From positions 372,001 to 436,000 of the forward strand of contig NZ_WTYY01000003.1 in NCBI RefSeq assembly GCF_009827405.1: 64,000 bases of DNA. Direction: 5' to 3'. This DNA comes from Alteraurantiacibacter aestuarii (GTDB lineage: Bacteria; Pseudomonadota; Alphaproteobacteria; Sphingomonadales; Sphingomonadaceae). Positions 187 through 62,539 of the stretch are shown piece after piece (position 1 is the stretch's first letter; every line of letters starts with the position of its first letter). The position numbers and the translations under genes were made by a program. Under the pieces are notes generated by a model. It worked only from the letters and a program-made list of their open reading frames with translations. It did not search any database and was not told the origin of the DNA.

Positions 187-215
187 GATATAGGTGCAGC
201 TTCCCCCATGGGCAA
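187..215 (-). promoter_or_regulatory. Predicted leaderless promoter of the Zur/Fur gene
   Basis: On the minus strand the -35 hexamer TTGCCC (210-215) and the -10 hexamer TATATC (187-192) are separated by 17 nt. Six nt separate the -10 from the ATG at 180, so transcription would start on or next to the A of the start codon. This is sequence pattern only. Confidence 0.5.
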
Positions 216-227
216 ATGCCGCGGCGT

Positions 228-902
228 TTATCCGGTGCGGAAAGTGCTGCGGTACAGCTGCGGGAACTCTTCGCGCAGTGCCTCCACCTTGGGAGCATCC
301 CAACGGCGGATATAGGGATTGGTGGGATTCCTGAGCGAGAAATCCTGATGATATTCCTCCGCCTCATAAAAAGCGCGCGGGTTCTCGATCGCCACCACGA
401 TGGGCCTGTCCCACACCCCGCTGCGCCCCATTTGCGCCAGGTAAGCCTGCGCCACGGCGCGCTGTTCGGCGTTCATCGGGACGATGGCGGAGCGATACTG
501 CGTGCCGTGATCGGGACCCTGGCGGTTGAGCAGGGTCGGATCGGCACCAACCGAGAAGAGGATTTGCAGCAGCTGGTCATAACGGACCACAGACGGGTCA
601 TAAACCACCTTCACCGCCTCTGCATGACCGGTCACGCCAGACGATACCAGCGAGTAGCTCGCCTGCTGCTGTGTGCCGCCGTGATAGCCCGATACGGCGC
701 TTTGCACGCCGCGCGTGTGGGAGAAGATCGCCTCGATCCCCCAGAAGCAGCCTCCTGCGAAAATGGCGGTCTGCAAGCCGCTCTCATCCGCCTGCCTAGT
801 GGCGACGGGCGCGTTGAAGACCTCTTCAGCGGAAGAGGGCGTGGCGGTGATGGCTACGCCGGCAAGCGCGGCGGCAAGGAGTGCGGCTTTGAACTTCATC
901 AT
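228..902 (-). CDS. msrA: Peptide-methionine (S)-S-oxide reductase MsrA, exported form
   Basis: The enzyme reduces methionine-S-sulfoxide in oxidised proteins back to methionine. The catalytic GCFWG motif is at residues 51-55 of 224, followed by the usual GYHGG segment and the conserved YHQDF stretch (EEYHQDFS) near the C-terminus. The first ~25 residues form a signal peptide (KFKAALLAAALAGVAITATPSSA), so this copy should act in the periplasm. Two adjacent ATGs (902, 899) are possible starts; GGAGG lies just upstream. A 34-codon ORF ends inside the start region. The Zur/Fur gene lies 47 bp downstream on the same strand. Confidence 0.93.
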   Translation of the reverse strand: MMKFKAALLAAALAGVAITATPSSAEEVFNAPVATRQADESGLQTAIFAGGCFWGIEAIFSHTRGVQSAVSGYHGGTQQQASYSLVSSGVTGHAEAVKVVYDPSVVRYDQLLQILFSVGADPTLLNRQGPDHGTQYRSAIVPMNAEQRAVAQAYLAQMGRSGVWDRPIVVAIENPRAFYEAEEYHQDFSLRNPTNPYIRRWDAPKVEALREEFPQLYRSTFRTG

Positions 903-1003
903 GAACCTCCAAGGTGTGGGAGGATATTCGCGGCAAGTACCACGGCAGTTACACCGAAGCCGAGAAGGAATGAACGATAAAGTTCGGCGGTAAACAGACC
1001 CAT
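899..1003 (-). CDS. 34-aa single-pass membrane miniprotein candidate upstream of msrA
   Basis: A short ORF, MGLFTAELYRSFLLGFGV..., ends NILPHLGGS. It has one clear hydrophobic segment (about residues 12-28) and overlaps the msrA start (its TGA lies on 899-901). Its last codons carry the GGAGG that serves msrA, so translation of the two could be coupled. Its own ribosome site is weak (CAGAAAG about 12 nt before the ATG). About 30 nt upstream is CCTACATAGGGTGC, resembling the -10 region used elsewhere in this window, without a convincing -35. It could be a genuine small membrane protein or a leader ORF; I do not recognise a family. Confidence 0.45.
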   Translation of the reverse strand: MGLFTAELYRSFLLGFGVTAVVLAANILPHLGGS

Positions 1004-1215
1004 GGGAAATTGCTTTCTGCGAATTCTTTATTGCACCCTATGTAGGCACGAATGTCTTGCATGCGGCTGAACAGGCGCAAACTCGCCGCAGCGCTGCGTC
1101 GCTTCATCGTGATTCGGGCGGGGAAGCAGGCTTTGCGGCCCCGAAAGGCCGGTATCACAGGCCCGATATCAGAATTCCTGAAGCTTCAGCGCAGCAGTGG
1201 CGCATCAGTGGAGCA

Positions 1216-2838
1216 TCAGTGGCGGAAATGGCGCATCCCGGTGAAAACCATCGCCAGGCCCGCGTCATCGGCCGCCTTGATCACCTCGTCATCGCGCATC
1301 GCGCCACCCGGCTGGATCACGACGCTGGCACCGGCTTCCAGCGCCACTTCAATGCCGTCGGCAAAGGGCAGGAAGGCATCGGACGCCATCGCGCTGCCAA
1401 TGGTGCGCGGATTGTCCCAGCCGGCGGTCTGCGCCGCTTCGCGCGCCCGCGCGGCGGCGATGCGCCCGCTGTCACGCCTGTTCATCTGGCCAGCGCCAAT
1501 GCCAGCCGTGGCGCCATCCCTGGCAAAGACGATGGCATTGGACTTCACGTGCTTGGCCACTTTCCAGGCGAACAGGCAATCGGCCAGTTCTTGTGCACTG
1601 GGCGCGCGCTTGCTGACCACTTTCAGGTCACCCGGTCCGATATCGCCCGCATCGCGCGATTGCAGCAGCATGCCGCCGGCAATGGATTTCATCTGCAGGC
1701 CGGGACGCGCGGCATCGGGCAGATCTTCCACCAGCAGCAGGCGCAGGTTCTTCTTGGCGGCAAAGGCCGCGCGCGCAGCATCGTCCGCACCCGGCGCGAT
1801 CACCACTTCGGTGAAGATCTCGCAGATCGCCCGCGCGGTTTCTCCATCCAGCGGGACATTGGTGGCAACAATCCCGCCAAAGGCAGACACGCTGTCGCAG
1901 GCCAGCGCCTCGCGCCAGGCTTGCAGCAGGGACGGTGCCTGGGCCACGCCGCAGGGGTTGGCATGCTTGACGATCACCACCGCCGGATCGCCGCCGGCAA
2001 ATTCCGCAACCAGTTCCAGCGCCGCATCGGCATCGTTGTAATTGTTGTAGGACAGCTCCTTGCCCTGCACCTGCTGCGCCTGCGGAATGCCGCGCGCGCC
2101 CACGCTCTGCGGCAGATAGACCGCAGCCGTCTGGTGCGGGTTTTCGCCGTAGCGCAAAGTGTCCTTCAGGGTGAAAGCCAGCGGCAGCTTGTCGACAAAG
2201 GGCGTGGCTTTCAGCGCGTCTGGCCCCAGCGGATTGGAGAAGGCATCGGCAAAGGCGAACCAGTTGGCGATGGCGGCATCATAGCTGGCGGTCTTGGCAA
2301 AGGCCTTGCCTGCCATGCGGATGCGGAAGGCGAGGCTGGTGGCACCGTCCTGCGCGTCCAGCTCCGCCAGCAGTTCTGCATAGTCGGATGGATCGGTGAC
2401 GATGGTCACGAAACCATGGTTCTTGGAGGCGGAGCGGACCATTGCCGGGCCGCCGATATCGATGTTCTCGATGATCTCGTCCCGGCTCGCCCCGCGCGCC
2501 ACGGTCTGTTCGAACGGGTAGAGGTTGACCACCAGCAGATCGATCGCGCCGATCCCGTGGCTGTCCATCGCGGCCTTGTGCTCGGCATTGTCGCGCACGG
2601 CCAGCAATCCGCCATGCACCACCGGGTGCAAGGTCTTGACCCTTCCGTCCATCATCTCGGGGAAACCGGTCAGGTCAGAAACGTCTTTCACCTCCAGCCC
2701 GGCATCGCGGATCGCCTTGGCAGTGCCGCCGGTGGAAACAAGCTCCACCCCATTGGCTGCCAGCGCGCGGGCCAGTTCCACAATACCGTCCTTGTCGGAC
2801 ACTGAGAGGAGCGCCCGTTTGATCGTAACCTGTGTCAT
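1216..2838 (-). CDS. purH: Bifunctional AICAR transformylase / IMP cyclohydrolase PurH
   Basis: PurH catalyses the last two steps of IMP synthesis: formylation of AICAR with 10-formyl-THF, then ring closure. The start [16 protein letters not shown] gives 540 aa, the usual length. The N-terminal MGS-like cyclohydrolase domain ([17 protein letters not shown], then GRVKTLHP) is followed by the transformylase domain with RYGENPHQ and KHANPCGVA. The frame stays open upstream of 2838, but that segment belongs to the preceding gene. It lies 11 bp behind the heparinase gene and is the last gene of the rpe operon. Confidence 0.97.
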
Positions 2839-2849
2839 GTCGTGAATTT

Positions 2850-4784
2850 CTATCCCATTCTCTTCAGCAGCCAGCTGAAATTGCCGCCGCCGCGCGAAGC
2901 GAGTCCCTGAATCACCAGCTGCTCTACAGGATGCGGGCGTCCATCGCCATCGACCCACAGGCTTTCTTCAGTTTCCAGCTTTTCTGCCCCGGTCATGAAT
3001 TGCCAATAGCTGCCATCGGGCAGCGATAATGTGGCGCCGCGCCCGTTGTCGGCCAGCTTGAGGGTCACCTGCGGGCCAAGATGGAAGCGCAGGGCATAGG
3101 GCACCTTGCCGCGCTTGCCCTTGCGGCCGGAGGGGACCAGCAGGTCCTCCCCGCGCAGTTCACTGCCATCGTCGCGCAGGATCAGGATGCGGCGGTGGAT
3201 CAGGCCAAAACGCGTGGCATAGCCATCATGGCTGGCCTCGATCCTGGTGGCCCCGCCATTGTCCAGCTTGATCGTGCGGCGGTCCACCTCCACTTCGCCC
3301 ACGCCCGTTCCCAGCTTGCCGTTGATCAGCACGGCGGTGGAATTGGCATCGCCCAGCACCAGCGTGGAATGGGCAGCAGTGGCGCGCAGGCCCTGTTCGA
3401 TGCGCACCGGCACCTGCCCGCCCGCCAGTGCGGAGCCGCCGCAATTGACGATCAGCCGGTGATCCCCGTGCGAGAGTTCGAACGCCAGCGTGGATGCGCA
3501 ACCATTGCGGGCATGGCGCGCCAGCGGCGGCGGCGAGGTATCGAATTGCAGGATCGCGGGCTTGGCGGCGATCCGTTGATAGCCCCATTGGCGCGCATCG
3601 CGCAGCGGGCGGGCGCGAATGCCGCTGGCCTTCACCAGCGCCTCTATCCGCTCCGCCTTCACCGCGCCGGAGCCCTGCCAGTTGCCCAGCGAGCCATCGG
3701 CATGGGTCAGCGCCAGCAGCGGCGGCACCAGCAGCGCCTGCATTGTCTCTATCGCCTGAGGAGGATCGCGCCGTACCGCGCGGTAACAGGCGGTAACGTC
3801 GATCAGTGCCGCGATCACATGCATCTGCGCCACCGGGCTGCGTGACAACACGCCGCCATCGTCGCCCACCAGTTCTCCCAGAGCGCGCACCAGTCCCGCT
3901 TCGCCAAACAGGCGGCGCGGCTTGCCTTCGGGCAGCAGCAAACCGGCGGCGATTATCGCGCACCAGCCGATCACCTCGCCATGACGATCGTCGGCGCGGG
4001 TAACGTTGCGATCCAGCCAGCGCGCCGTATCGGCCATCGCATCCAGCACTTGCTGGCGCAGCGCCTTGTCCTGACCCGACAGGATCAGCGGCGCATGCAC
4101 CAGCCATGCAAGCAGGCGGTGCCCGGCATTTTCGACCTTCCACGCCGCGCCCTTGTCGGCGGACTTGTTCGCCTGCATCCACGCCTGGAGGATACGCTCT
4201 GCCGTGGCATTGCCTTGCGGACGCGGGGCGCAGCAATCGAGATCACGCAGCCACGAGAAGCCCTGCACCGCGCGCTCAAAAGGCGGGGTCAGCTTGGCGA
4301 CAGACGCGAAATCGAGCTGCGCGATCGGCGCCTTCACCCCGTGGACAAGGAAATGGCCTGCCCGCAGCGCCATGCCGGCAACACGGTCCCCCTCCAGCGG
4401 CGTTTCCACCGTGGCCAGCAGGCGCGGGCGCAGCGGCTTGCGGAAAGGCGCGGACAAGGTGGAGCCGGGAACACCCAGGCGATAGGCAAAGCGCAGCAGC
4501 CGTTCACCGGCGCTGATGTCTGGCGGGTTGAAATCGGACAGCGCCAGTTCGCGCCCTGCCCCCACCGGCGCGTCTGCGGAATAGTCTTTGGCCATGTCTG
4601 CGGGCATATCTGCGGACATATCTGCGGACATATCTGCGGACTTGCTGGCAATGGCGCTTTTCAGAGCCAGTTCCTCTGGTCGATCATCATCAAGGGGTAT
4701 CGCCATTTGCATGGGTCCTTCCCGCAAACCATCATCGGAATCCCCATCCGAGCCATGATGCAGCCGGGTGGAAAGATCGTCCAT
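2850..4784 (-). CDS. Heparinase II/III family protein
   Basis: A 644-aa protein with a C-terminal heparinase II/III-like beta-domain (for example [46 protein letters not shown]) after an alpha-helical toroid. The family contains polysaccharide lyases acting on uronic-acid glycans; the substrate here is unknown and cytosolic versus exported location is unclear because no standard signal peptide is seen. The start is uncertain. The ATG at 4784 is 2 nt after rpe and has AAGGG upstream; an ATG at 4712 has a closer GGAAGGA. Residues ~49-64 are an in-frame SADM repeat. The order rpe - heparinase - purH is, from memory, common in sphingomonads. Confidence 0.85.
4593..4640 (-). repeat. 12-nt in-frame tandem repeat in the heparinase N-terminus
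   Basis: There are four copies of a 12-nt unit: three identical (CATATCTGCGGA on the plus strand) and one with two changes. On the coding strand the unit reads Ser-Ala-Asp-Met, so copy-number change keeps the frame. It lies in a low-complexity acidic N-terminal stretch, outside the recognisable catalytic region. Confidence 0.9.
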
Positions 4785-4786
4785 GC

Positions 4787-5446
4787 CTAGCAGCCCTTCA
4801 GCGCGGCGATGTTGGCGGCGTAGCAATCTGGCCCGCCCTTGAAGGTGGCGGAACCGGCAACCAGCACATCCGCGCCCGCATCCACGCAGCGGCGCGCATT
4901 GTCGGCTGTTACCCCGCCATCCACTTCGATCAGGACATCGTGCCCGCCCTTGTCGATCATCTTGCGCACGGCCTCGATCTTGCGCAGCTGGCTTTCGATG
5001 AAGCTCTGCCCGCCAAAGCCGGGATTGACGCTCATGATCAGTACCAGGTCGATTTCCTCGATCAGATAGTCGAGCATCTTGGCAGGCGTTGCCGGATTGA
5101 GCGAAATGCCCGCCTTCTTGCCCAGCGCCTTCACCGCCTGCACGCTGCGATGGACATGCGGTCCCGCTTCGGGGTGCACGGTGATGATATCGGCACCCGC
5201 ATCGGCGAATTGCTCGATCCACATATCGACAGGTGAGACCATCAGGTGGACATCGAAGACCTTCGCGCTGTGCGGTCGCAGCGCCTTCACCACCGCCGGA
5301 CCGATGGTGAGGTTGGGGACATAATGCCCGTCCATCACATCGACATGGATCCAGTCTGCCCCGGCTGCATCCACGGCGCGCACCTCTTCACCCAGCCGGG
5401 CGAAATCGGCGGATAAAATCGAGGGCGAGATGAGTGGTGATTTCAT
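4787..5446 (-). CDS. rpe: Ribulose-phosphate 3-epimerase
   Basis: Rpe interconverts ribulose-5-phosphate and xylulose-5-phosphate in the pentose phosphate pathway. The 219-aa TIM barrel carries [38 protein letters not shown] and EVDGGV, all family signatures with metal- and phosphate-binding residues. The conserved N-terminus sets the start at ATG 5446; in-frame upstream codons to 5521 are not family-like. TTGTTC, 17 nt and TATCGC end 12 nt before this ATG, predicting a very short leader. It heads the rpe - heparinase - purH unit. Confidence 0.96.
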
Positions 5447-5686
5447 GATTGCCATAATGCGATAGGCTGCGGCGAATCGGCGAACAAGCTGGGCGGGGGA
5501 CATTTTCCACACAGGGGCCATTCTGTGCCCGAATATTTACACGCGGCTGACGGCATTCTTCACATGCTGTTCAGTGGCAAATATCCAATAACCGGCGCAA
5601 ACAGGGGTCAAACCCTGCGCGATTGCACGGCAAGACCCGGCGGGGTCAGTGATCGCAATGGTCGCGAGTTTGAAACAGGATTATTC

Positions 5687-6181
5687 ATGCGTCTATCTGT
5701 TCGTAATGGCTTTGCAGCCCTGATGATTGCCATTGCGGGCGTTTCGCTTGCGGTTCCGGCCTATGCGCAGTTCCGCCAGGAAATCCGCAACGATCCCGCA
5801 CCCTGCCGTGGCAGCGGGCCTGCCATCCGCATCAATGTGGCCGGTGTCAGCAACTCCAATGGCGTAGTGCGCGTACAGCTGTATCGCGGGATCGAGTCCG
5901 ACTGGCTGGAAAGCGGGCGGTGGATCTATCGCATGGAAGCCCCGGCGCGGCAGGGCAACATGAGCTTCTGCATGCCCGTTCCGCAGGCCGGCACCTATGG
6001 CATTGCCGTGCGCCATGACGTGAACGGCAATGGCAGCACCGATATCCGCACAGACGGCGGGGCCATGTCCAACAATCCCAATCTGAACATCTTCAACCTG
6101 GGCAAGCCCAATTATCGCCGCACCCGCTTTGATGTCGGCAACAGCGTGATCACGCTCAATTTGCAGATGCGCTACCTGTAA
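5687..6181 (+). CDS. DUF2141-family secreted protein (copy 1)
   Basis: A 164-aa protein with a signal peptide (MRLSVRNGFAALMIAIAGVSLAVPAYAQ) and a DUF2141-type fold: NVAGVSNSNGVVRVQLY, then AGTYGIAVRHDVNGNGSTD and a C-terminal ITLNLQMRYL. The DxNGNGxxD loop is typical of the family; the function is unknown. AGGA lies 7 nt before the chosen ATG; the longer frame from 5525 lacks such support. The leader contains a small GACCC/GGGTC hairpin. A paralogue lies at 13.8-14.3 kb. Confidence 0.85.
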   Translation: MRLSVRNGFAALMIAIAGVSLAVPAYAQFRQEIRNDPAPCRGSGPAIRINVAGVSNSNGVVRVQLYRGIESDWLESGRWIYRMEAPARQGNMSFCMPVPQAGTYGIAVRHDVNGNGSTDIRTDGGAMSNNPNLNIFNLGKPNYRRTRFDVGNSVITLNLQMRYL

Positions 6182-6227
6182 GGCGCGCCAGCAGGCTGCT
6201 TAGCCAGACCGGGTCAGCCTGACCCGC

Positions 6228-8368: not shown

Positions 8369-8397
8369 TTGCGCGCATCAGGCACGCGCGGTAGACA
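8369..8397 (+). promoter_or_regulatory. Predicted leaderless promoter of the M20 amidohydrolase
   Basis: TTGCGC (8369-8374), 17 nt, TAGACA (8392-8397), then exactly 6 nt to the ATG at 8404. No Shine-Dalgarno sequence is present, so translation probably starts on a leaderless mRNA. Confidence 0.5.
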
Positions 8398-11798: not shown

Positions 11799-11827
11799 TT
11801 GACGATGTTCCCATTTCGTTCCAGTTT
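11799..11827 (+). promoter_or_regulatory. mmcB promoter with LexA box in the spacer
   Basis: TTGACG (11799-11804), 17 nt, CAGTTT (11822-11827), then 6 nt to the ATG at 11834. The spacer carries GTTC-N7-GTTC at 11807-11821, exactly the direct-repeat LexA operator of alphaproteobacteria. A repressor there would cover the gap between -35 and -10. The -10 is weak on its own. Confidence 0.7.
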
Positions 11828-21306: not shown

Positions 21307-21335
21307 TTGAGGCTCTGCCAAAAATCCTTCACACG
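21307..21335 (+). promoter_or_regulatory. Predicted leaderless promoter of nadC
   Basis: TTGAGG (21307-21312), 17 nt, CACACG (21330-21335), 6 nt, ATG 21342. The -35 is good and the -10 is poor; the geometry matches other promoters in the window. Confidence 0.4.
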
Positions 21336-26516: not shown

Positions 26517-26543
26517 GCGCGCATCCCTATCAAGAGGCTGGTC

Positions 26544-27989
26544 TTAAAGCAATTTGGGCTGGCCACCTTCTGCCGCTGGAGCCTTGGGCTGGGCCGGTTT
26601 TTTCCTGCCCGCCGGCACCACCTGAAGATCGCCATCGCGAAAACGTATGGCGAGCGAAGGCTTTACCTGCGCTGAAGCCTTGTCCGTCACCGGCCTGCCC
26701 GCTGCATCGAAAACCATCGCATATCCGCGCTGGAGCGGCTTTTCGGGATGCAATTGCTCGGCCAGCCGCGCCAGTGCCGCCAGTTTCTGCGCCTTTTCGG
26801 CAATCGGCCGCGTGACCAGCATGGGCGAGAGTCGGACGGTATCGAGCCGCTGCTTCGATTCGCGCCAGTTGCGCTCCAGCACAGCGGGCGAGAGGCGCAG
26901 CGCGCCCAGCCGCTCCCGCCCCGAAGCTGCACGGTCGAGCAGGCCGCGGCGCAATTTCTCACCCAGGTCATCCAGTTTCTGCGCGGGCAATTGCAGCAAT
27001 TGTTCGGGCCGGGGCAGGCGCTGTGCACGCGCCTCCAGCCGCTCGCGTCCAAGAGTGACGGGGCGCAGAGCGGTCTTGCGCTGGCGCAGGCCCAGATCAT
27101 CCAGCGTATTGGCCAGGTCCGCCCGCACCGGCACCGCCATTTCGGCGGCGGCGGTGGGCGTGGGTGCGCGCGCATCGGCGGCAAAATCGGCCAGCGTGGT
27201 ATCGGTTTCATGCCCCACCGCGCTAATGGTGGGGATCGGCGAGGCAGCGATGGCGCGCACCACCACCTCTTCATTGAAGGCCCACAGATCCTCTATCGAT
27301 CCGCCGCCGCGCGCCACGATCAGCAGATCGGGCCGTACGCCTTCGGGCATCGCCCCAAAGCCGTTTATCGCAGCCGAGATCTGCGCGGCGGCGCCATTGC
27401 CCTGCACCAGCACCGGCCACACCAGCACATGGCTGGGAAAGCGATCGGCCAGCCGGTGGAGGATATCGCGAATCACCGCACCGGTGGGCGATGTGACCAC
27501 GCCGATGGTTGTGGGAATGAACGGCAGCTGCCGCTTGCGCTCAGGCGCGAACAGGCCTTCCGCCTCCAGCCGCTTGCGGGTCTTTTCCAGCAGGGCGAGC
27601 AGCGCGCCTTCACCGGCGATCTCCATCCGCTCCATCACGATCTGGTATTTCGACCGGCCCGGATAGGTCGTCAGCTTGCCCGTCGCGATCACTTCAATGC
27701 CGTCTTCGGGCACGAAGGACAGGCGCTGCGTCGATCCGCGCCACATCACCCCGTCAATCACCGCGCCTTCATCCTTCAGGCTGCAATAGAGGTGGCCGGA
27801 GGCGGCGCGCTTCACGCCCGAAAGCTCGCCGCGCAGCTTCACATGGCCGAACCGGTCCTCCACCGTGCGCTTGAGTGCCTGCGAAATCTCGGTGATGGTC
27901 AAGGCACCGGAATTGTCCCCGGCGCTCTCCTTGGCTACCAGCCCATCACTTGCAGAATCAAAATCGGAACTGGAATTGGAGCCGGGCAT
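26544..27989 (-). CDS. xseA: Exodeoxyribonuclease VII large subunit
   Basis: XseA is the catalytic subunit of the single-strand-specific exonuclease VII. In the 481-aa protein the OB-fold ([27 protein letters not shown]) precedes the catalytic domain ([57 protein letters not shown]) and a long C-terminal coiled region. The start codon (27987-27989) overlaps the purD start codon on the other strand by two bases, and the frame beyond it runs antisense to purD. The small subunit xseB is not in the window. Confidence 0.95.
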
Positions 27990-31647: not shown

Positions 31648-31720
31648 GTTTATTCCCGTGGTTCCAAGATAGGGTCGAAAGATTGACTTGGCCGCTCACA
31701 GAAGCAATCGCAAGCCAACA

Positions 31721-32918: not shown

Positions 32919-33869
32919 ATGCGAGCAATGACTGCCCAATTTGCCGATTTCACGCGCCAGGCCGCAGTTGACGGTGCCATTTCCGATGATGAGATTCTGC
33001 AGCTACGCGCCGCAGGCTGGGCCAATGGCACGATCACGCGGGAGGAGGCTTCGGCCATCTTCTCGCTGCAACGCGCAATTGCAGATCGCACGCCCGTTTG
33101 GAGCGATTTCTTTGTCGAGGCGATCAAGGAATATGTCCTCAACGGCACCGAGCCGCGCGGCTATGCCAGCGACAGCGAGGCTGGCTGGCTGATCGTCGAG
33201 ATCGAGCGCGACGGCCATCTGTGCTCCATGACAGAGCTGCAATTGCTGGTGGAGATCACCGACAAGGCCTGCAACGTCCCCGAAGCGCTGAAATACTTCG
33301 TGCTGCGGGAAATTGAACGCGCCGTCCTGACCGGCGTTGGCCCCACCCGCGATGGCGGAGAACTGTCCAACACCCATGTGACGCCCAGCGAATGCACCAT
33401 CATGCGCCGGGTCATTTTCGGTCAGGCGAGTGACCGGCCCGCTGCCGTAAGCCAGCGCGAAGCTGAAATGCTCTTTCGCCTGAAGGACGCGACACTCGAA
33501 GCAGCCAATGCGCCGGAATTCATGGAACTGTTCGTCCAGGGCGTGGGCAATTACCTGATGGGTTTTGCCTCACCCAGCGCCCAGCTCAGCCGTGAGCGGA
33601 TGGTGGAGTTGGAGAGCTTTGTCAGCCGCAACAAGCCAAACATCGGCCATTTCATGGGCCGCATGGCACAATCTGCGCCCAATGCCTTTGGGGTGGTGTT
33701 TGGCCAAAAGGGGCAGCTCCCCGGCCGCGATGAACTGGTGCAGGAGGCGGCTTCGTTTTCGCTCTATGAGCAGGACTGGCTCGACCAGCAGATCGCCGCC
33801 AACGGGCTGAGCGACCATTATGACCAGGCGCTGATGGCCTTCATTGCCGAGGAACTGGGCGAGGCCTGA
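32919..33869 (+). CDS. Conserved hypothetical protein, 316 aa
   Basis: A soluble, acidic, helical protein with no signal peptide. Internal repeats of a calcium-hand-like or TerB-like pattern may be present: AAVDGAISDDEILQLRAAGW, SEAGWLIVEIERDGHLCSMTELQLL, LSNTHVTPSECTIMRRVIFG and VSQREAEMLFRLKD. I cannot assign a domain with confidence. The start is ambiguous: AGGGGA is 2 nt before ATG 32919 but about 12 nt before ATG 32928. Confidence 0.65.
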   Translation: MRAMTAQFADFTRQAAVDGAISDDEILQLRAAGWANGTITREEASAIFSLQRAIADRTPVWSDFFVEAIKEYVLNGTEPRGYASDSEAGWLIVEIERDGHLCSMTELQLLVEITDKACNVPEALKYFVLREIERAVLTGVGPTRDGGELSNTHVTPSECTIMRRVIFGQASDRPAAVSQREAEMLFRLKDATLEAANAPEFMELFVQGVGNYLMGFASPSAQLSRERMVELESFVSRNKPNIGHFMGRMAQSAPNAFGVVFGQKGQLPGRDELVQEAASFSLYEQDWLDQQIAANGLSDHYDQALMAFIAEELGEA

Positions 33870-41492: not shown

Positions 41493-41521
41493 TCGACAGG
41501 TGCCCCGCGCTTTGCCATAGG
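41493..41521 (+). promoter_or_regulatory. Predicted leaderless promoter of pyrD
   Basis: TCGACA (41493-41498), 17 nt, CATAGG (41516-41521), then CAAGCC (6 nt) and the ATG at 41528. No ribosome site is present. Confidence 0.5.
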
Positions 41522-48295: not shown

Positions 48296-48314
48296 AGGCT
48301 CGCCGGGATAGCGC

Positions 48315-48686
48315 CTAGACTGCGCGGCGCAAGTTGAGGATGTGTCCGCTGGCCACCAGCACCACGCCGATCACGGTCAGCACCGCCTCTTCATAGCCAT
48401 GCCCGATCGCCAGCGCGCCGCCCATGAAGGACAGGCCCGTCATCGCCACCACGAAGGGCAGCGGACGGCGGTGGCGGATTGCGCCAATGCCGATGGCCAC
48501 GCCGGCAATGATGGTGGCGAGCAGCAGGCCGACCTTGTGAATCGACGGATCGAGCAGGAAAGTGCCGCCAAGGCCCAGGCCCGCAACCAGCACCAGCCCG
48601 ACCACGCAGTGCACCAGGCACAGGCATGACAAGACCACGCCAACACGGTCAAGCTGGCCGCGAATCCTGAAGATGATTGAGTTCAT
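48315..48686 (-). CDS. merC: MerC-domain membrane protein
   Basis: A 123-aa protein with four transmembrane helices. The first helix carries a cysteine-rich metal-binding motif (VVLSCLCLVHCVVGLVLVAG) as in MerC mercury transporters; chromosomal members lacking other mer genes are often linked with zinc homeostasis. No merA or merR is present. A Zur-like box lies inside its promoter, supporting zinc-related metal uptake or handling. Confidence 0.85.
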   Translation of the reverse strand: MNSIIFRIRGQLDRVGVVLSCLCLVHCVVGLVLVAGLGLGGTFLLDPSIHKVGLLLATIIAGVAIGIGAIRHRRPLPFVVAMTGLSFMGGALAIGHGYEEAVLTVIGVVLVASGHILNLRRAV

Positions 48687-48693: not shown

Positions 48694-48722
48694 TATGTAT
48701 GTAACGCTATAACATTGCGCAA
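48694..48722 (-). promoter_or_regulatory. merC promoter with Zur-like operator in the spacer
   Basis: Minus strand: -35 TTGCGC (48717-48722), 17 nt, -10 TACATA (48694-48699), then 7 nt to the ATG at 48686. On the plus strand 48701-48718 reads GTAACGCTATAACATTGC, which agrees at 14 of 18 positions with the alphaproteobacterial Zur consensus as I remember it (GAAATGTTATAACATTAC). The operator would occlude the promoter. The match has not been scored against a database. Confidence 0.55.
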
Positions 48723-48770: not shown

Positions 48771-48799
48771 TTGCGATTCGGGGCATCAAAGCGCAAATC
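48771..48799 (+). promoter_or_regulatory. Predicted leaderless promoter of ctaA
   Basis: TTGCGA (48771-48776), 17 nt, CAAATC (48794-48799), 6 nt, ATG 48806. This supports the ATG at 48806 over longer in-frame starts. Confidence 0.45.
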
Positions 48800-54513: not shown

Positions 54514-54866
54514 TATGCGTCCGGGTCACTATCGGCAGGTTCATCCGGTGATATCGAAGGGCGCTGGCTGCGCCACCGGCCATAGGCGGTGAAGGCCACC
54601 GGCCAGAACATGGTGTTGGCGATATCATGAAAATTTTCAAGCGGTTGCTGCCATTGCAGCAGCCGTGCCAGCCGCAAGATGTCGGCAATCTCTCCCGCGA
54701 TGCAGAAGCCGAACACGATCACCAGCGGCAGCAGGCTGCCCAGCTTCCGGCCGCTCAGCCAGAGCGCCGCGAAAAACAGCAATATGCTGATATGGATATG
54801 CAGCGCATCGCGCGACATGCCCGAATAATTGATCATGTAGAGCTTGGCTTGCTCGAACCCGATCAC
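54513..54866 (-). CDS. Hypothetical membrane protein, 117 aa
   Basis: Two to three hydrophobic segments (HIHISILLFFAALWLSGRKLG, LLPLVIVFGFCIAGEIADIL, FHDIANTMFWPVAFTAYGRW) and an acidic tail (SISPDEPADSDPDA). The pattern His-Ile-H...GE-x-xD resembles VanZ-like or unnamed small membrane proteins, without a firm call. It overlaps the upstream LytTR regulator gene by 4 nt, so it belongs to the second LytS/LytTR operon and may be its target or partner. Confidence 0.65.
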   Translation of the reverse strand: MIGFEQAKLYMINYSGMSRDALHIHISILLFFAALWLSGRKLGSLLPLVIVFGFCIAGEIADILRLARLLQWQQPLENFHDIANTMFWPVAFTAYGRWRSQRPSISPDEPADSDPDA

Positions 54867-56862: not shown

Positions 56863-56943
56863 TCCGCTTTACTTACCCCCAGCCAGCCCCCGGACGCCAG
56901 CCCCGCGCCATATCCCGGTCGAAGCGGGACGGCATTTGGTCGA

Positions 56944-58470
56944 TCAACCGGGCTGCAACAGGCCTTCCTCGGCAATCCGGCGGCGCCAGTGCAGCGGGGC
57001 AAGCGTGTGGACATTATTGCCCCTGGCATCCACCGCCACCGTTACCGGCATGTCCTTCACGGTGAATTCGTAGATCGCCTCCATGCCCAGATCCTCAAAG
57101 GCGACCACCTTCGATTCCTTGATGGCGCGGGCGACCAGATAGGCAGCCCCGCCCGTGGCCATCAGATAGGCCACCTTGAAGCGGCTGATCACGTCCACCG
57201 CATCGGCCCCGCGCTCGGCCTTGCCGATCATCGCAAGCAGGCCCTGGTCCAGCATCATTTCGGTAAACTTGTCCATCCGGGTGGCGGTAGTGGGGCCCGC
57301 CGGGCCGACCACTTCGCCCATCACCGGATCGACCGGGCCGACATAATAAATGGCGCGGCCCCGGAAGCTGACCGGCAGCTCCTCCCCGCGTTCCAGCATG
57401 TCCTGAATGCGCTTGTGCGCCGCATCGCGGCCCGTCAGCATCTTGCCGTTCAGCAGCAGGCGGTCGCCGTTCTGCCAGCCGGCAACTTCTTCCGCGGTCA
57501 GATTGTCCAGATCGACCTTCTTGGCCGCCGCATCGGGCTGCCAGTGCACATCGGGCCACTGGCTGAGGTCTGGCGGATCGAGATAGGCCGGACCTGATCC
57601 GTCCAAGGTGAAATGCGCATGGCGGGTGGCGGCGCAATTGGGGATCATCGCCACCGGCTTGCCCGCCGCATGGCAAGGCGCGTCGAGAATCTTCACATCG
57701 AGCACGGTGGAAAGCCCGCCCAGCCCCTGTGCGCCCACGCCCATCGCATTGACCGCGTCATAGATATCGATGCGCAGCTGCTCGATATCGCTCTGCGCGC
57801 CGCGCGCCTTGAGCTGACCCATGTCGATCGGTTCCATCAGGCTGAGCTTGGCCAGCTTCATGCAATGTTCCGCCGTGCCGCCAATGCCGATGCCCAGCAT
57901 GCCTGGTGGGCACCAGCCCGCGCCCATCGAAGGGATCTGTTCGACCACCCAGTCGACGATATTGTCGGACGGGTTCATCATCTTGAACTTGCTCTTGTTC
58001 TCGCTGCCGCCGCCCTTGGCCGCGACATCGATGGATACCGTGTTGCCGGGCACCATCTCCACCGACAGCACCGACGGCGTGTTGTCACGCGTGTTGCGGC
58101 GGGTGAAAGCGGGATCGGCCAGGATCGAGGCGCGCAGCTTGTTGTCCTTGTGATTATAGGCGCGGCGCACGCCTTCATCGACCACGTCCTGCAAGGCCTT
58201 GTCCGATGCCAAGCGGCAATCCTGGCCCCATTTGACGAACACGTTGACGATGCCGGTGTCCTGGCAGATCGGCCGATGCCCCTCCGCGCACATGCGGCTG
58301 TTGGTCAGGATCTGGGCGATGGCATCCTTGGCCGCCGGCCCCATTTCCGCATCATAAGCCTTACCCAGAGCCTTGATGTAATCCATCGGATGGTAATAGG
58401 AGATGTATTGCAGCGCGTCGGCCACACTCTCGATGATGTCTTCCTCGCGGATAATGGTGACGTCATTCAT
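56944..58470 (-). CDS. Class I fumarate hydratase (4Fe-4S)
   Basis: A 508-aa oxygen-sensitive fumarase converting fumarate and malate in the TCA cycle. Both halves are present: N-terminal MCAEGHRPICQDTGIVNVF, CPPGMLGIGIGGTAEHCMKLAK and MIPNCAATRHAHF supply the cluster cysteines, and the C-terminal beta part has YYVGPVDPVMGEVVGPAGPTTATRMDKF. It depends on the SUF/ErpA machinery in this window. AGGAG lies 10 nt before the ATG. Confidence 0.95.
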   Translation of the reverse strand: MNDVTIIREEDIIESVADALQYISYYHPMDYIKALGKAYDAEMGPAAKDAIAQILTNSRMCAEGHRPICQDTGIVNVFVKWGQDCRLASDKALQDVVDEGVRRAYNHKDNKLRASILADPAFTRRNTRDNTPSVLSVEMVPGNTVSIDVAAKGGGSENKSKFKMMNPSDNIVDWVVEQIPSMGAGWCPPGMLGIGIGGTAEHCMKLAKLSLMEPIDMGQLKARGAQSDIEQLRIDIYDAVNAMGVGAQGLGGLSTVLDVKILDAPCHAAGKPVAMIPNCAATRHAHFTLDGSGPAYLDPPDLSQWPDVHWQPDAAAKKVDLDNLTAEEVAGWQNGDRLLLNGKMLTGRDAAHKRIQDMLERGEELPVSFRGRAIYYVGPVDPVMGEVVGPAGPTTATRMDKFTEMMLDQGLLAMIGKAERGADAVDVISRFKVAYLMATGGAAYLVARAIKESKVVAFEDLGMEAIYEFTVKDMPVTVAVDARGNNVHTLAPLHWRRRIAEEGLLQPG

Positions 58471-58505
58471 CGAAGGGTGACTCCTGCTGATACAATTTTC
58501 GACAT

Positions 58506-58568
58506 CCCTTAAGGCTGCACCCTGTTATGGTCAAAGGCCTTGGCCTTGCGCTATGTTGCGCTTAAGGC
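58506..58568. promoter_or_regulatory. Divergent promoters of fumarase and the PIMT-like gene
   Basis: Minus strand: TTGACC (58529-58534), 17 nt, TAAGGG (58506-58511), leading to fumarase. Plus strand: TTGGCC (58540-58545), 17 nt, TAAGGC (58563-58568), leading to the PIMT-like gene. Both have the same spacer and a TAAGG-type -10. Sequence pattern only. Confidence 0.45.
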
Positions 58569-58601
58569 TCCGCCCATTCAAGCGACGAGAGATATATAGC
58601 A

Positions 58602-59207
58602 GTGACCATGGTTGAAACCCGGCCCCTTTCCAGTGGCTCGCAATCCGCCCGCAGGGCGATGATTGACAGCCAGTTGCGCACCAGCGGCGTGGTTGGCGAT
58701 GACGTTATCCGCCGCATGGGCGAAGTTGCGCGCGAGGATTTCGTGCCCGCATCGGTCAAGGGCGTTGCCTATGTCGACCGGGCCATCCCGCTGGGCGATG
58801 GCAAGTTCCTGGCGGCCCCACTGGTGCACGGCAAGATGTTGCAGGAAGCCGCGCCAAAGCCGCATGAAAGCGCGATCGTCGTCGATGGCGGCAGCGGCTA
58901 TCTGGCCGAATTGCTGCGTCCGCTGGTCGCCTCTCTCAAGGTGCTTACCCCGCAGGAGGCACTGGAAGCCGGGCGCGGGAAAAAGGCCGATCTGCTGATT
59001 ATTGACGGGGCGGCTGAACATATTCCCGATGCACTGGCCAAGCGCCTGGCCGACAATGGCCGGATCGTTACCGGCATTGTCAGGGATGGGGTTACCCATC
59101 TGGCACAGGGCCGCAAGCTGGCAGGAACCATTGCCCTGCAACCGATCGCGGAAATCGGCATTCCTCGCCTTCCCCAATTTGATGAGCCCAAGGGCTGGAG
59201 ATTCTGA
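58602..59207 (+). CDS. Protein-L-isoaspartate methyltransferase-like protein, degenerate
   Basis: A 201-aa protein related to PIMT: ARRAMIDSQLRTSGV, EDFVPASVKGVAYVDRAIPLGDG and the terminal GRIVTGIVRDGVTHLAQGRKL. However, the SAM site is VVDGGSGYLAELL instead of EIGTGSGY..., and the active-site segment usually reading TIS-x-P is FLAAP, so the catalytic Ser is Ala. It is shorter than true PIMT (~217 aa). Probably inactive as a methyltransferase. GTG 58602 or ATG 58608 starts; tolC follows after 2 nt. Confidence 0.75.
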   Translation: MTMVETRPLSSGSQSARRAMIDSQLRTSGVVGDDVIRRMGEVAREDFVPASVKGVAYVDRAIPLGDGKFLAAPLVHGKMLQEAAPKPHESAIVVDGGSGYLAELLRPLVASLKVLTPQEALEAGRGKKADLLIIDGAAEHIPDALAKRLADNGRIVTGIVRDGVTHLAQGRKLAGTIALQPIAEIGIPRLPQFDEPKGWRF

Positions 59208-59209
59208 AC

Positions 59210-60658
59210 ATGCCCGCCAAAGGGTTGAAAGCGAGTCTGCTCGCCTGCGTCTGTCTAACTGCCAGCCCGGCTGCTGCCGATACGCTGAAGGAAGCGCTGG
59301 CACAGACATATTTCAGCAATCCGCAACTGGAAGCCGCGCGTGCACAGTTGCGCGCCACCGATGAAACCGTGCCGATCCAGCGCGCCAGCGGCCTGCCTTC
59401 GCTCAGTTCCTCGGCCAGCCTGACCGAATTCCTGAAGCAAAGCTCTGCCAGCTTCATTTCCCCGCAGCGATCGCTGTCGGCCAATATCGATCTTGGCGTG
59501 CCGCTCTATTCCGGCGGCAGCGTACGCAATGGCGTTCGCGCGGCGGAAAACCGGGTCGAGGCGGGCCGCGCCGATCTGCGCGGTACCGAAAGCACGATTT
59601 TCACGCGCGTCGTCTCCGCCTATATGGACGTCATCCAGAATGAGGCGATCGTCGGCCTGACGGCGAATAACGTCGACGTGCTGTCAACCAATCTGGAAGC
59701 CACCAGCGACCGGTTCGAGATTGGCGATCTGACGCGCACCGACGTGGCCCAGTCGGAAAGCCGGCTGGCGCTTGCCCGCAGCGATTATCGCACAGCGCAG
59801 GCCAATCTGGTGATCGCGCGGGAAAACTACATCGCGCTGGTTGGCTCTGCTCCCAATGCTCTGGAAGCGCCGCCGCCGCTGCCCGGCCTTCCTGCCGATC
59901 TGCAACAGGCCGTGGACCTGGCGCTGGAACATAACCCGGACCTGATCGCCGCGCGGGAGCGCATTCAGGCTGCCGGCTACGATATCGATGCCGCCGGTGC
60001 CGGACGCCTGCCGCGGATCGAGGCTTTCGCCAGCAGCGGCTATCAGAATTACCTCGGCACGCTGGGCAGCATTCCCGGCGCCGCGGCACCATCGCAGGTC
60101 AGCACCTCGGCACAGGCGGGCCTGCGCCTGTCGATCCCGATTTTTCAGGGTGGCCGTATTTCCGCCCAGCAACGCCAGTCGCAGGCCAATTCCTCGGTCG
60201 CGCTGGAGCAGGGCATTGCCACGGAACGCAGCGTGATCGCACAGGTCCGCTCATCCTATTCCAACTGGCAGGCGGCCCGGTCAATCATCGCTTCGACCCA
60301 GTCCGCCGTTGATGCCGCAGAGCTCAGCCTGGAAGGCGTGCGCGCGGAAAATTCCATCGGCAACCGGTCGATCCTCGATGTGCTGAATGCCGAGCAGGAA
60401 TTGCTGCGTGCACAGGTCCAGCTGGTGACGGCCCGCCGCAATGAATATGTCGCCGGGTTTAGCCTGCTGGCCGCGATGGGCCGCGCCGAAGCGCGCGATC
60501 TGGGACTGGAGAGCGAAGGCCCGCTGTACGATCCCGTGGTCAATTATGAACGTTCGCGCGGGATCTATCTCGACTGGCACAGCGATCCCGATCCTGTCGC
60601 CCGGTCCACGCGCACCGTTGACATACCGGCACAAGATGGCGAGATTTCGCAAGACTGA
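59210..60658 (+). CDS. tolC: TolC-family outer membrane efflux protein
   Basis: A 482-aa protein with a signal peptide (LKASLLACVCLTASPAAAD) and the duplicated TolC helical repeats: LKEALAQTYFSNPQLEAARAQLRA, RVVSAYMDVIQNEAIVGLT, RFEIGDLTRTDVAQSESRLA and VRAENSIGNRSILDVLNAEQELLRAQ. It forms the outer-membrane channel of tripartite export or efflux systems; no partner pump is nearby. Two nt after the PIMT-like gene. Confidence 0.94.
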   Translation: MPAKGLKASLLACVCLTASPAAADTLKEALAQTYFSNPQLEAARAQLRATDETVPIQRASGLPSLSSSASLTEFLKQSSASFISPQRSLSANIDLGVPLYSGGSVRNGVRAAENRVEAGRADLRGTESTIFTRVVSAYMDVIQNEAIVGLTANNVDVLSTNLEATSDRFEIGDLTRTDVAQSESRLALARSDYRTAQANLVIARENYIALVGSAPNALEAPPPLPGLPADLQQAVDLALEHNPDLIAARERIQAAGYDIDAAGAGRLPRIEAFASSGYQNYLGTLGSIPGAAAPSQVSTSAQAGLRLSIPIFQGGRISAQQRQSQANSSVALEQGIATERSVIAQVRSSYSNWQAARSIIASTQSAVDAAELSLEGVRAENSIGNRSILDVLNAEQELLRAQVQLVTARRNEYVAGFSLLAAMGRAEARDLGLESEGPLYDPVVNYERSRGIYLDWHSDPDPVARSTRTVDIPAQDGEISQD

Positions 60659-60716
60659 TCAATCGGATCGGGCGCGCGCAGTTCAGACGCGCACAGTTCA
60701 GGCAGGCAGGGGCTTT

Positions 60717-61184
60717 ATGCGTCAGGATGGCGAACCGTCAGTCGAGGAGATCCTCGAATCGATCAAGAAGGTGATCGCCCGTGACAATCGCGAGATTGCG
60801 CAGGCTGAACGCAAGCGCCGGGAAAGCGCCGGCATGGTTCGCGACGCGTCATATGGTCAGGAACATGTTCAGGCAGATGACGACGTACTCGATCTGGGCA
60901 TGATCGCCGCTGAAATGGCACAGGATGAAATCGGCGATTCGGGCGAAGGGCTGACCACGGACGAAGCTGCCGATGCCATGCGCCAGTCGCTTGCCGCGCT
61001 CAGCATGCTCTCTGGCCCATCAGTGCCGCCACAGATCGTCCGCTCGGGCGAAACCTCTCTCGAGGGGCTGGTTCGCGAAATGCTGCGCCCGATGATGGCG
61101 CAATGGCTCGATGCCCACCTGCCCGAGATTGTGGAGCGGCTGGTCAAGGCAGAGATTGCCCGCATCGCCGGCAAGAAGCGCTGA
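60717..61184 (+). CDS. popZ: PopZ (DUF2497) polar organizing protein
   Basis: A 155-aa protein. The N-terminal hub motif is PSVEEILESIKKVIARDN, a variable acidic, disordered middle follows, and the C-terminal oligomerisation helices are LEGLVREMLRPMMAQWLDAHLPEIVERLVKAEIARIAGKKR. Length and layout match PopZ, which scaffolds proteins and the chromosome origin at the cell pole. The start follows GGGG 5 nt upstream. Confidence 0.9.
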   Translation: MRQDGEPSVEEILESIKKVIARDNREIAQAERKRRESAGMVRDASYGQEHVQADDDVLDLGMIAAEMAQDEIGDSGEGLTTDEAADAMRQSLAALSMLSGPSVPPQIVRSGETSLEGLVREMLRPMMAQWLDAHLPEIVERLVKAEIARIAGKKR

Positions 61185-61224
61185 TCCTGGCTAGCGCCCT
61201 GCAGCGCTTCGGCTGGCTCCGCAC

Positions 61225-61644
61225 ATGAGCGATACAGGCCATTCCCCCGATCAGCTGGAACAGGCTTCGCGCGCTCTGCACAAGATTGGCGGAGAGACGA
61301 TTGAGCGGCACATCTTCCTGTGCGGCATATCCGAAAAGCAGGAATGCTGCCGGCGTGAGGAAGGCGAACGCGCGTGGAAGTTCCTCAAGAAGCGGCTCAA
61401 GCAGCTGGGGCTTTTCGGTCCCAAGCGGCAGGATGGCAGCGGCGGTATCCAGCGCAGCAAGGCCGATTGCCTGCAAATCTGCGTTGCCGGGCCAATTGCC
61501 ATGATCTGGCCCGACCGCATCTGGTATCACTCCTGCAATGAGGACGTGCTGGAGCAAATCATCCAGCAGCACCTGATTGGCGGAGAACCGGTAGAGGAAT
61601 TCCGCCTGCGCGGGCGCGCGGATCAGGCAGATGAGTCGGCCTAG
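61225..61644 (+). CDS. Thioredoxin-like [2Fe-2S] ferredoxin domain protein
   Basis: A 139-aa protein: HIFLCGISEKQECC, then a basic loop, and DCLQICVAGPIAMIWPDRIWYHSC. The cysteine spacing fits the thioredoxin-fold 2Fe-2S ferredoxins (as in Aquifex Fd4 and (2Fe-2S) Trx-like proteins). Its electron partner is unknown. The stop is adjacent to the convergent membrane gene at 61645. Confidence 0.85.
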   Translation: MSDTGHSPDQLEQASRALHKIGGETIERHIFLCGISEKQECCRREEGERAWKFLKKRLKQLGLFGPKRQDGSGGIQRSKADCLQICVAGPIAMIWPDRIWYHSCNEDVLEQIIQQHLIGGEPVEEFRLRGRADQADESA

Positions 61645-61941
61645 TCAGGCCTGGTCTGTCTCATCCTTGAGCGGGTCTTCCACCGATTCGTCATGACCGG
61701 TGCCGCTGGACAGGAACACCAGCCCCATCAGCGCGCTCATCAACAGCATCGAAAAACCGATCCCCAGCGCGGTGGCGATGAAGAAGTGGACCGATATCAT
61801 TCCGTTCTGCTTGTAGATCAGTGCCATGGCGATGATCACCACGGCTACCGTCAGCATGAACATGAACCGCATCAGCCGCCGGTAACGCGCCCAGGCGTAG
61901 GTAGCTGTCTGTGGATCGTCGAGCGGGGAATGCTTGGCCAT
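61645..61941 (-). CDS. Two-helix membrane protein, 98 aa
   Basis: Starts MAKHSPLDDPQTATYAWARYRR with helices FMFMLTVAVVIIAMALIY and FFIATALGIGFSMLLMSALMGLVFL, then an acidic C-terminus (HDESVEDPLKDETDQA). Two ATGs lie at 61953 and 61941; GAGG 6 nt before 61941 favours the shorter form. No family is recognised. Confidence 0.7.
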   Translation of the reverse strand: MAKHSPLDDPQTATYAWARYRRLMRFMFMLTVAVVIIAMALIYKQNGMISVHFFIATALGIGFSMLLMSALMGLVFLSSGTGHDESVEDPLKDETDQA

Positions 61942-62061
61942 GGCCCGCCTCATGCCCTCACAAGAGGGTGCTGGCAACGCGGCATTTCGGCATGATCGGG
62001 CCAGAATTTGCCCAGACTCGGCAAAGCGTGGCATGATGACGACGGGATAAGGAGAAAAACG

Positions 62062-62490
62062 ATGTCAATCGCCCGCCTGATAGAAGGTCACAAACAGGAC
62101 ATCATCCAGTGTTCGCCCGGCGACCTGGTCCATCACGCTGCCAGCCTTCTGGCGGAGAAGCGCATCGGCGCACTGCCGGTAACGCAGGATTCCAGGGTTG
62201 TGGGCATATTTTCCGAGCGCGACCTGCTCTATTGCATCGCCCGTGAAGGGGCCGATGTGTTGCAGCGGCCGGTCAGTGACGTGATGACGTCACCGGCCAT
62301 CACTATCGGTCCTGATTGCGATGTGCTCAAGGCGCTTTCGCTGATGACCAAGCGGCGCATCCGCCACCTTCCGGTGGTCGACGGCGATGCGCTGCTGGCC
62401 TTCGTGTCCATCGGCGATCTGGTGAAATACCGGATGGGAATTATCGAGGCCGAGGCCGAGCAGATGCGCGAATATATCTCCATGGCCTGA
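62062..62490 (+). CDS. CBS-pair domain protein
   Basis: A 142-aa protein of two CBS motifs: VHHAASLLAEKRIGALPVT, VGIFSERDLLYCI, and DVLKALSLMTKRRIRHLPVVDG, FVSIGDLVKYRM. Stand-alone CBS pairs bind adenosine nucleotides and tune partner enzymes; no partner is evident. AGGAG precedes the ATG. Confidence 0.9.
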   Translation: MSIARLIEGHKQDIIQCSPGDLVHHAASLLAEKRIGALPVTQDSRVVGIFSERDLLYCIAREGADVLQRPVSDVMTSPAITIGPDCDVLKALSLMTKRRIRHLPVVDGDALLAFVSIGDLVKYRMGIIEAEAEQMREYISMA

Positions 62491-62510
62491 GTGCAGGTGG
62501 CCAAGCGCCC

Positions 62511-62539
62511 TTGAGTGCGGGGCGTGCGCATCCTACATC
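62511..62539 (+). promoter_or_regulatory. Predicted leaderless promoter of erpA
   Basis: TTGAGT (62511-62516), 17 nt, TACATC (62534-62539), 6 nt, ATG 62546. No ribosome site. One of the best examples of the geometry in this window. Confidence 0.55.

What the first reader, a model, noticed from the sequence alone, without database searches (positions are those of the whole stretch)
187..62539. A recurring leaderless-promoter layout: -35 hexamer exactly 35 nt before the start codon
Seen directly: zur (187-215), the M20 gene (8369-8397), mmcB (11799-11827), nadC (21307-21335), pyrD (41493-41521), ctaA (48771-48799) and erpA (62511-62539) each have a T-x-G-type -35 hexamer, 17 nt, a -10 hexamer with A at position 2, then exactly 6 nt and the ATG. 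merC fits with 7 nt and the gene at 32919 fits with a poorer -10. None of the seven has a clear Shine-Dalgarno site. Transcription would start on the A of the ATG. Leaderless mRNAs are known to be frequent in alphaproteobacteria; this uniform geometry, and its use for metal, NAD, heme, pyrimidine, SOS and Fe-S genes, is the observation.
Basis: partly seen in the sequence, partly recalled or inferred. Interest (0 to 1): 0.7.

Follow-up and report, generated by a model that had tools for sequence, protein, structure and literature searches.

The report
Leaderless promoters in a sphingomonad
[quoted passage not shown] this way of starting genes is already known, and here it is shown to be conserved gene by gene.

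Summary
The layout is real. All seven sites have the stated -35/17/-10/6/ATG geometry (zur lies on the minus strand, pyrD's -35 is TCGACA); about one is expected by chance among 76 starts. Relatives keep it: erpA in 80 of 80 loci (the best 80 of 219 found), zur in 21 of 21 and mmcB in 23 of 24 same-genus loci, pyrD in 25 of 25 by a looser rule, ctaA in 15 of 25, nadC in 11 of 22, M20 in 1 of 25. The gene at 32919 fails (0 of 7). "Exactly 35 nt" is too narrow: over 677 upstreams of 72 genes, TTG-17-TA ends 6, 7 or 8 nt before ATG in 29, 30 and 15 cases and 0-1 at every other distance to 30. Shine-Dalgarno-like motifs are depleted and a pyrimidine at -1 enriched. In 25 whole same-genus genomes the narrow pattern occurs 888 times against 282 at a control distance. 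It matches the published Sphingomonadales sigma-70 promoter (PMC7566282). These are most likely conserved leaderless or near-leaderless promoters, a known kind; no transcript-start data for this organism were available.

The parts
187..215 (-). zur promoter: -35 TTGCCC (215-210), 17 nt, -10 TATATC (192-187); 6 nt to ATG (first base 180)
   Evidence: geometry in 21 of 21 alignable loci (own plus 20 same-genus genomes; 4 of 24 gave no usable match); Pfam FUR
8369..8397 (+). M20 peptidase gene: promoter-like TTGCGC-17-TAGACA-6-ATG(8404)
   Evidence: strict geometry in 1 of 25 same-genus loci (its own), SD-like motif in 11 of 25; 3 of 9 by a loose rule; Pfam Peptidase_M20
11799..11827 (+). mmcB promoter TTGACG-17-CAGTTT-6-ATG(11834)
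   Evidence: 23 of 24 same-genus loci (3 duplicate loci removed), the 24th with spacer 18; Pfam MmcB-like
11807..11821 (+). GTTC-N7-GTTC box inside the mmcB spacer, abutting the -10 (LexA/SOS-box type; that assignment is recalled)
   Evidence: only exact match in the 64-kb window, none of GAACN7GAAC; present in 24 of 24 same-genus upstreams
21307..21335 (+). nadC promoter TTGAGG-17-CACACG-6-ATG(21342)
   Evidence: 11 of 22 same-genus loci with an assignable ATG (24 loci); Pfam QRPTase
41493..41521 (+). pyrD promoter TCGACA-17-CATAGG-6-ATG(41528)
   Evidence: TTG-17 in 1 of 25 same-genus loci, but T[TC]G-17/18-[TC]A at 5-8 nt in 25 of 25; Pfam DHO_dh
48771..48799 (+). ctaA promoter TTGCGA-17-CAAATC-6-ATG(48806)
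   Evidence: spacer 17 at 5-8 nt in 15 of 25 same-genus loci (12 with T or C first in the -10), 16-18 at 5-10 nt in 24 of 25; Pfam COX15-CtaA
62511..62539 (+). erpA promoter TTGAGT-17-TACATC-6-ATG(62546)
   Evidence: spacer 17 in 24 of 25 same-genus genomes and 16 in the other; 80 of 80 loci of named records (best 80 of 219); Pfam Fe-S_biosyn
48694..48722 (-). merC promoter TTGCGC-17-TACATA-7-ATG(48686), with an imperfect palindrome (ATGTTAT...GTTACAT) across spacer and -10
   Evidence: geometry in 10 of 10 orthologs; Pfam MerC
26524..26552 (-).
   Evidence: 11 of 11 orthologs; Pfam
   Evidence: 9 of 11 orthologs by the loose rule; Pfam MafB19-deam and dCMP_cyt_deam_1
56870..56899 (-). histidine kinase gene: promoter-like TGGCGT-18-TAAGTA-7-ATG(56862); weak -35
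   Evidence: 9 of 9 orthologs by the loose rule only; Pfam His_kinase
48305..48332 (-). thiS-like gene promoter TTGCGC-16-TATCCC-9-ATG(48295); short-leader type
   Evidence: 8 of 10 orthologs; Pfam ThiS
31683..31711 (+). EI24/CysZ-like gene: conserved TTGACT...CAATCGC about 9-10 nt before ATG(31721); register ambiguous, short-leader type at best
   Evidence: 10 of 10 orthologs by the loose rule; Pfam EI24

Best explanation
These are housekeeping sigma-70-type promoters placed so that the usual start point, about 6-7 nt after the -10 hexamer, falls on the A of the ATG. RNA polymerase would start on the ATG (or 1-4 nt before it where the distance is 7-10), giving leaderless or near-leaderless mRNA without a Shine-Dalgarno site, and 70S ribosomes would bind the 5'-terminal AUG directly. 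Shown here: the geometry, its confinement to 6-8 nt under the strict rule, its gene-by-gene conservation, the depletion of SD-like motifs, the pyrimidine at -1 and the whole-genome excess. Inferred: the transcription start itself, the sigma factor, the translation mechanism, and that the spacer boxes (LexA-type in mmcB, a palindrome in merC) are operators. In this genus about 12% of testable ATG starts have the layout by the strict 70% rule (6 of 48 in the window, 3 of 24 outside) and about 20% by looser rules (9 of 48, 5 of 24), after removing likely coding artefacts.
For: Distance histogram over 677 upstreams of 72 genes: TTG-17-TA at 6/7/8 nt in 29/30/15, 0-1 at every other distance 0-30. 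Footprint of 48 testable window genes: strict motif 6-10 nt before ATG in 102 of 433 ortholog starts against 3-16 at six control offsets. Outside the window, strict rule: block B (next to the window) 24 of 98 against 1-2, block A (another contig) 9 of 74 against 0-4. erpA in 80 of 80 loci. Whole genomes: 888 at 6 nt against 282 at 12 nt over 25 same-genus genomes, excess in 25 of 25. SD-like motif in 9 of 151 starts with the geometry against 146 of 526 without. Pyrimidine at -1 in 62 of 74 against 295 of 494; gene-level P 0.016. Published Z. mobilis sigma-A promoter: TTGNNN, spacer mostly 17, TANNNN, discriminator mostly 6 (PMC7566282, passages). Leaderless transcripts are mapped in other alphaproteobacteria (passages).
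Against: No TSS data for this organism. With the loose rule the control offsets are not empty (19-30 of 433 against 100-138; 2-8 of 74 against 10-12 and 2-9 of 98 against 25-26). Held-out block A is weak (1 of 7 genes at 50% or more, none at 70%). In the own genome outside the window the excess is modest: 40 hits at 5-9 nt against 22.5 expected among 357 starts, 22 against 10.2 and 9 against 3.8 at higher thresholds; start calls there are approximate. ctaA distances of 9-10 nt in 9 of 25 loci imply short leaders or misassigned starts. Orthologs are not independent, so upstream-level P values are inflated. Stretches of two genomes of other families, G029 and G037, show no peak (1 against 0.7 and 0 against 1.6 at predicted starts). 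A preference for ATG over GTG/TTG starts was not significant.
Confidence: 0.87

Rival explanations
1. Chance hexamers picked out by a reader looking for them; the genes are ordinary leadered genes.
For: The layout was chosen post hoc; M20 keeps it in 1 of 25 loci and nadC in 11 of 22; 32919 fails.
Against: erpA 80 of 80, zur 21 of 21, mmcB 23 of 24; strict-rule control offsets are nearly empty; whole-genome excess in 25 of 25 genomes.
Confidence: 0.04
2. The promoters are real but the mRNAs carry a short leader of about 1-5 nt, or the true start codon lies downstream, so the genes are near-leaderless.
For: Distances of 7-10 nt occur; ctaA, thiS and EI24 orthologs often sit at 9-10 nt.
Against: Sharp limits at 6 and 8 nt for TTG-17-TA; mostly a pyrimidine at -1, an unfavourable +1 base (recalled).
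Confidence: 0.25
3. The conserved pairs are sites of a shared regulator or of an alternative sigma factor rather than housekeeping sigma-70.
For: A LexA-type box in mmcB and a palindrome in merC overlap the promoters.
Against: Most spacers are otherwise unconserved and the genes functionally mixed; hexamers and spacing match the published sigma-A model.
Confidence: 0.06
4. Some hits are side effects of protein-coding constraint in the upstream gene, whose stop codon TAG or TAA mimics a -10.
For: g19 and g49 overlap the 3' end of the upstream gene; g59 and b6 look like conserved coding sequence.
Against: Does not explain erpA, zur, mmcB, merC or DUF2093, where mainly the hexamers (and, in mmcB and merC, the box between them) are kept.
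Confidence: 0.1

Closest known systems
Sigma-A/sigma-70 promoters of Zymomonas mobilis and Novosphingobium aromaticivorans
   Same: TTGNNN -35, spacer most often 17, TANNNN -10, discriminator most often 6 in Z. mobilis; no conserved T at -7 in Z. mobilis, and >80% without it in N. aromaticivorans (PMC7566282 and PMC8407463, passages)
   Different: In Z. mobilis 119 of 2,675 TSS-gene pairs are leaderless (leader of 5 nt or less). Here C stands first in the -10 in about a third of cases by gene weight, though the search rule admitted only T or C
Leaderless mRNAs of Caulobacter crescentus and Sinorhizobium meliloti
   Same: Same class; [quoted passage not shown] PMC4117421 and PMC3616915, passages)
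   Different: Measured there, inferred here; here conservation across many genomes was tested gene by gene
TA-led (leaderless) genes of Zheng et al. 2011
   Same: TANNNT-like signal about 10-12 bp before the start codon read as a leaderless promoter (PMC3160421, passages)
   Different: That survey used 20 bp upstream in bacteria; here a -35 at a fixed spacing, SD depletion and orthologs add support

Membership tests
Sphingomonadales sigma-70 promoter | TTG-type -35 and [TC]A-type -10 with a spacer near 17 bp | tested here: met
   spacer 17 in 123 of 139 training promoters of 8 genes (a set chosen by geometry)
Sphingomonadales sigma-70 promoter | recognised by the housekeeping sigma factor | not testable with these tools
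   needs in-vitro transcription
Leaderless gene | -10 about 6-8 nt before ATG so that +1 falls at ATG | tested here: met
   (not for M20 in relatives, and only in part for ctaA and nadC)
Leaderless gene | no Shine-Dalgarno site | tested here: met
   0 of the seven; 9 of 151 against 146 of 526
Leaderless gene | AUG start codon | tested here: inconclusive
   14 of 351 ATG starts against 1 of 82 GTG/TTG starts have the geometry, P 0.32
Leaderless gene | mapped 5' triphosphate end at the start codon | not testable with these tools
   no RNA data
LexA (SOS) regulated promoter, mmcB | GTTC-N7-GTTC operator at the promoter (motif recalled) | tested here: met
   (24 of 24 same-genus upstreams)
LexA (SOS) regulated promoter, mmcB | LexA binding and SOS induction | not testable with these tools
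   needs an experiment

The most novel reading that the evidence does not exclude
Leaderless start is itself a selected, conserved trait of a defined gene set in this family: promoter and start codon are locked together for erpA, zur, mmcB, merC, pyrD and others, in some with a repressor box built into the spacer, so that one 35-bp element sets both transcription and (SD-independent) translation. Other genes, such as M20, move between leaderless and SD-led types.
Probability: 0.35. Interest if true: 0.55.

Novelty: new member of a known kind. Interest (0 to 1): 0.36.

Why it matters
It gives a comparative way to find leaderless genes without RNA data and to correct start codons, and it names genes (erpA, zur, mmcB, merC) where leaderless expression appears conserved. 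These would be good test cases for why bacteria keep leaderless genes and how regulation works without a leader. The principle itself is known.

Tried and rejected
Own-genome stretches were chosen by coordinate before looking at them. Of the comparative blocks outside the window, block A was chosen for a conserved anchor gene, block B because it adjoins the window; L033 was passed over after its gene list looked like a mobile region, and L044 because its anchor was found in few relatives. Maximising over all candidate starts gave hits inside coding sequence (e.g. g1, g16, g21), so later counts use the 5'-most ATG kept by 70% of orthologs: 48 of 76, 7 of 16 and 17 of 22 called genes were testable; zur and mmcB were not testable by this rule and rest. 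g59 and b6 were taken as coding artefacts and removed before (they are still in the counts); g19 and g49 may be artefacts too. Most ortholog searches used queries that included the promoter, which may favour loci with a conserved upstream. The E. coli sample (39 starts) is too small to serve as a control. Regular expressions for a Zur-type palindrome found nothing; the merC palindrome was seen by eye. A paper search for at least two of leaderless, Erythrobacter, Novosphingobium, Sphingopyxis, Sphingomonas found 1,799 papers, of which the 25 listed had no occurrence of leaderless; searches listed no study of leaderless genes in Erythrobacteraceae among the rows shown. This is not proof of absence.
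Full report
What was checked. The seven sites were read in the sequence. Each has a -35-like hexamer, 17 nt, a -10-like hexamer with A second, 6 nt and ATG. zur is on the minus strand; pyrD has TCGACA. Pfam agrees with the names M20 peptidase, MmcB-like, QRPTase (nadC), DHO_dh (pyrD), COX15-CtaA, Fe-S_biosyn (erpA) and MerC; zur runs off the window, and its full 153-residue protein, read from the genome, is a FUR-family protein. For any ATG in the window, T.G-17-.A lies at a given distance 1.3% of the time, so about 1.0 of 76 starts is expected and seven were reported; the P value is nominal because the pattern was chosen after looking.

Where the genome belongs. The named records with the closest erpA are Altererythrobacter, Aurantiacibacter, Erythrobacter and other Sphingomonadaceae/Erythrobacteraceae. 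The window's genome is held as 2.24 Mb in 5 contigs, 69.7% complete.

Orthologous upstream regions from up to 24 same-genus genomes were lined up on the start codon (recount without duplicate loci and other families). erpA: TTGAG, spacer 17 in 24 of 25 genomes and 16 in the other, TANAT, then ATG. Among the best 80 of 219 stretches found in named genome records, 80 of 80 keep the geometry (63 at 17/6, 11 at 17/7, 3 at 17/9, 2 at 17/8, 1 at 16/6). zur: 21 of 21 alignable loci. mmcB: 23 of 24 with spacer 17, the last with 18; GTTCN7GTTC between the hexamers in 24 of 24. pyrD: TTG-17 in 1 of 25, but T[TC]G with 17 or 18 nt and [TC]A 5-8 nt before ATG in 25 of 25. ctaA: 15 of 25 at 5-8 nt with spacer 17 (12 of them with T or C first in the -10), and 9 of the other 10 at 9-10 nt. 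nadC: 11 of 22. M20: 1 of 25 (its own), with SD-like motifs in 11 of 25; 3 of 9 by a loose rule. The gene at 32919: 0 of 7.

A footprint of the window against 11 relatives could test 48 of 76 called genes. With the strict rule (TTG, 16-18 nt, TA or CA) the motif stands 6-10 nt before ATG in 102 of 433 ortholog starts and in 3-16 at control distances; with the loose rule (also TCG, TGG) in 138 against 19-30. Nine genes reach 70% by the strict rule: g19, g29, g34, g49, g53, g54, g55, g59, g74; g59 is taken as a coding artefact and g19 and g49 may be, leaving six (12%). The loose rule adds g25, g48 and g66 (nine of 48, 19%). Outside the window 24 genes were testable in two blocks: strict hits 9 of 74 (block A) and 24 of 98 (block B, next to the window) against 0-4 and 1-2 at controls; three genes reach 70% (12%) and five reach 50% (21%) after removing the coding artefact b6.

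Geometry. Pooling these 72 genes (677 upstreams), TTG-17-TA lies 6, 7 and 8 nt from ATG in 29, 30 and 15 cases and 0-1 at every other distance from 0 to 30. So the rule is 6-8 nt, not exactly 6. In the own-genome sample TTG peaks at -36, -35 and -34 (20, 14, 10 of 433 predicted starts, about 7 elsewhere), and TTG-17-[TC]A at 6-8 nt is found 25 times against 5.6 expected among 635 candidate starts, window included. Without the window, a weight matrix gives 40 hits at 5-9 nt against 22.5 expected among 357 starts.

Consequences expected of leaderless genes. SD-like motifs: 9 of 151 with the geometry, 146 of 526 without; a control stretch further upstream gives 11 of 151 and 47 of 526. Base before ATG: pyrimidine in 62 of 74 against 295 of 494; gene-level P 0.016 with 14 and 66 genes. 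ATG against GTG/TTG was inconclusive.

Breadth. In whole genomes the narrow pattern TTG-17-TA-6-ATG occurs 888 times in 25 same-genus genomes against 282 at 12 nt (same codon phase) and 440 for the reversed pattern; 25 of 25 show the excess against both. In 16 genomes of other families of the order it is 970 against 703 at 12 nt, uneven (0.85- to 2.3-fold, below 1 in three). Across 57 other genomes of the class it is 2,577 against 1,635 for the reversed pattern; 21 at least two-fold and 8 with no excess. Stretches of G029 and G037 showed no peak. So the habit seems to depend on lineage.

What is known. Z. mobilis sigma-A promoters have TTGNNN, 17, TANNNN, 6, and 119 of 2,675 TSS-gene pairs are leaderless (PMC7566282, passages). 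Over 80% of N. aromaticivorans promoters lack T at -7 (PMC8407463, passages). Caulobacter has 375 and S. meliloti 171 leaderless transcripts (PMC4117421 and PMC3616915, passages). Zheng et al. infer leaderless genes from a TA signal near the start (PMC3160421, passages). Direct 70S binding to a 5' AUG is the route described in a review (PMC9031893, passages). The finding is therefore a new instance of a known kind; what is added is gene-by-gene conservation, the 6-8 nt window and operator-like boxes in the spacer.

Limits. No RNA data; home-made gene calls; related genomes are not independent; the operators and the sigma factor are inferred.

Noticed in passing
window 11807-11821 (+): GTTC-N7-GTTC box, the only exact match in the window, sits between -35 and -10 of the mmcB promoter and is present in 24 of 24 same-genus upstreams; consistent with LexA control (recalled motif).
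   Followed up: partly
window 48694-48722 (-): The merC promoter spacer and -10 hold a conserved imperfect palindrome (ATGTTAT...GTTACAT, seen by eye), possibly a metal-regulator (Zur-like, recalled) operator; zur lies about 48 kb away.
   Followed up: partly
L357:17181-17244: Two divergent genes with 62 bp between their ATGs, both apparently leaderless, whose -35 elements overlap in TTGCCGCAA; similar in relatives.
   Followed up: partly
window 18455 and 42563 (+): Start codons shortly after the upstream gene's stop, without a clear SD; the stop codon TAG/TAA would double as the -10. May be coding constraint or promoters embedded in gene ends.
   Followed up: partly
window 8404 (+): M20 peptidase gene: leaderless-type layout in this genome, SD-like motifs in 11 of 25 same-genus loci, suggesting turnover between start types.
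   Followed up: partly
window 48295 (-): thiS-like gene: in several relatives a GTG directly before the ATG lies 6 nt after the -10 (by eye), so a leaderless GTG start is possible there.
   Followed up: no
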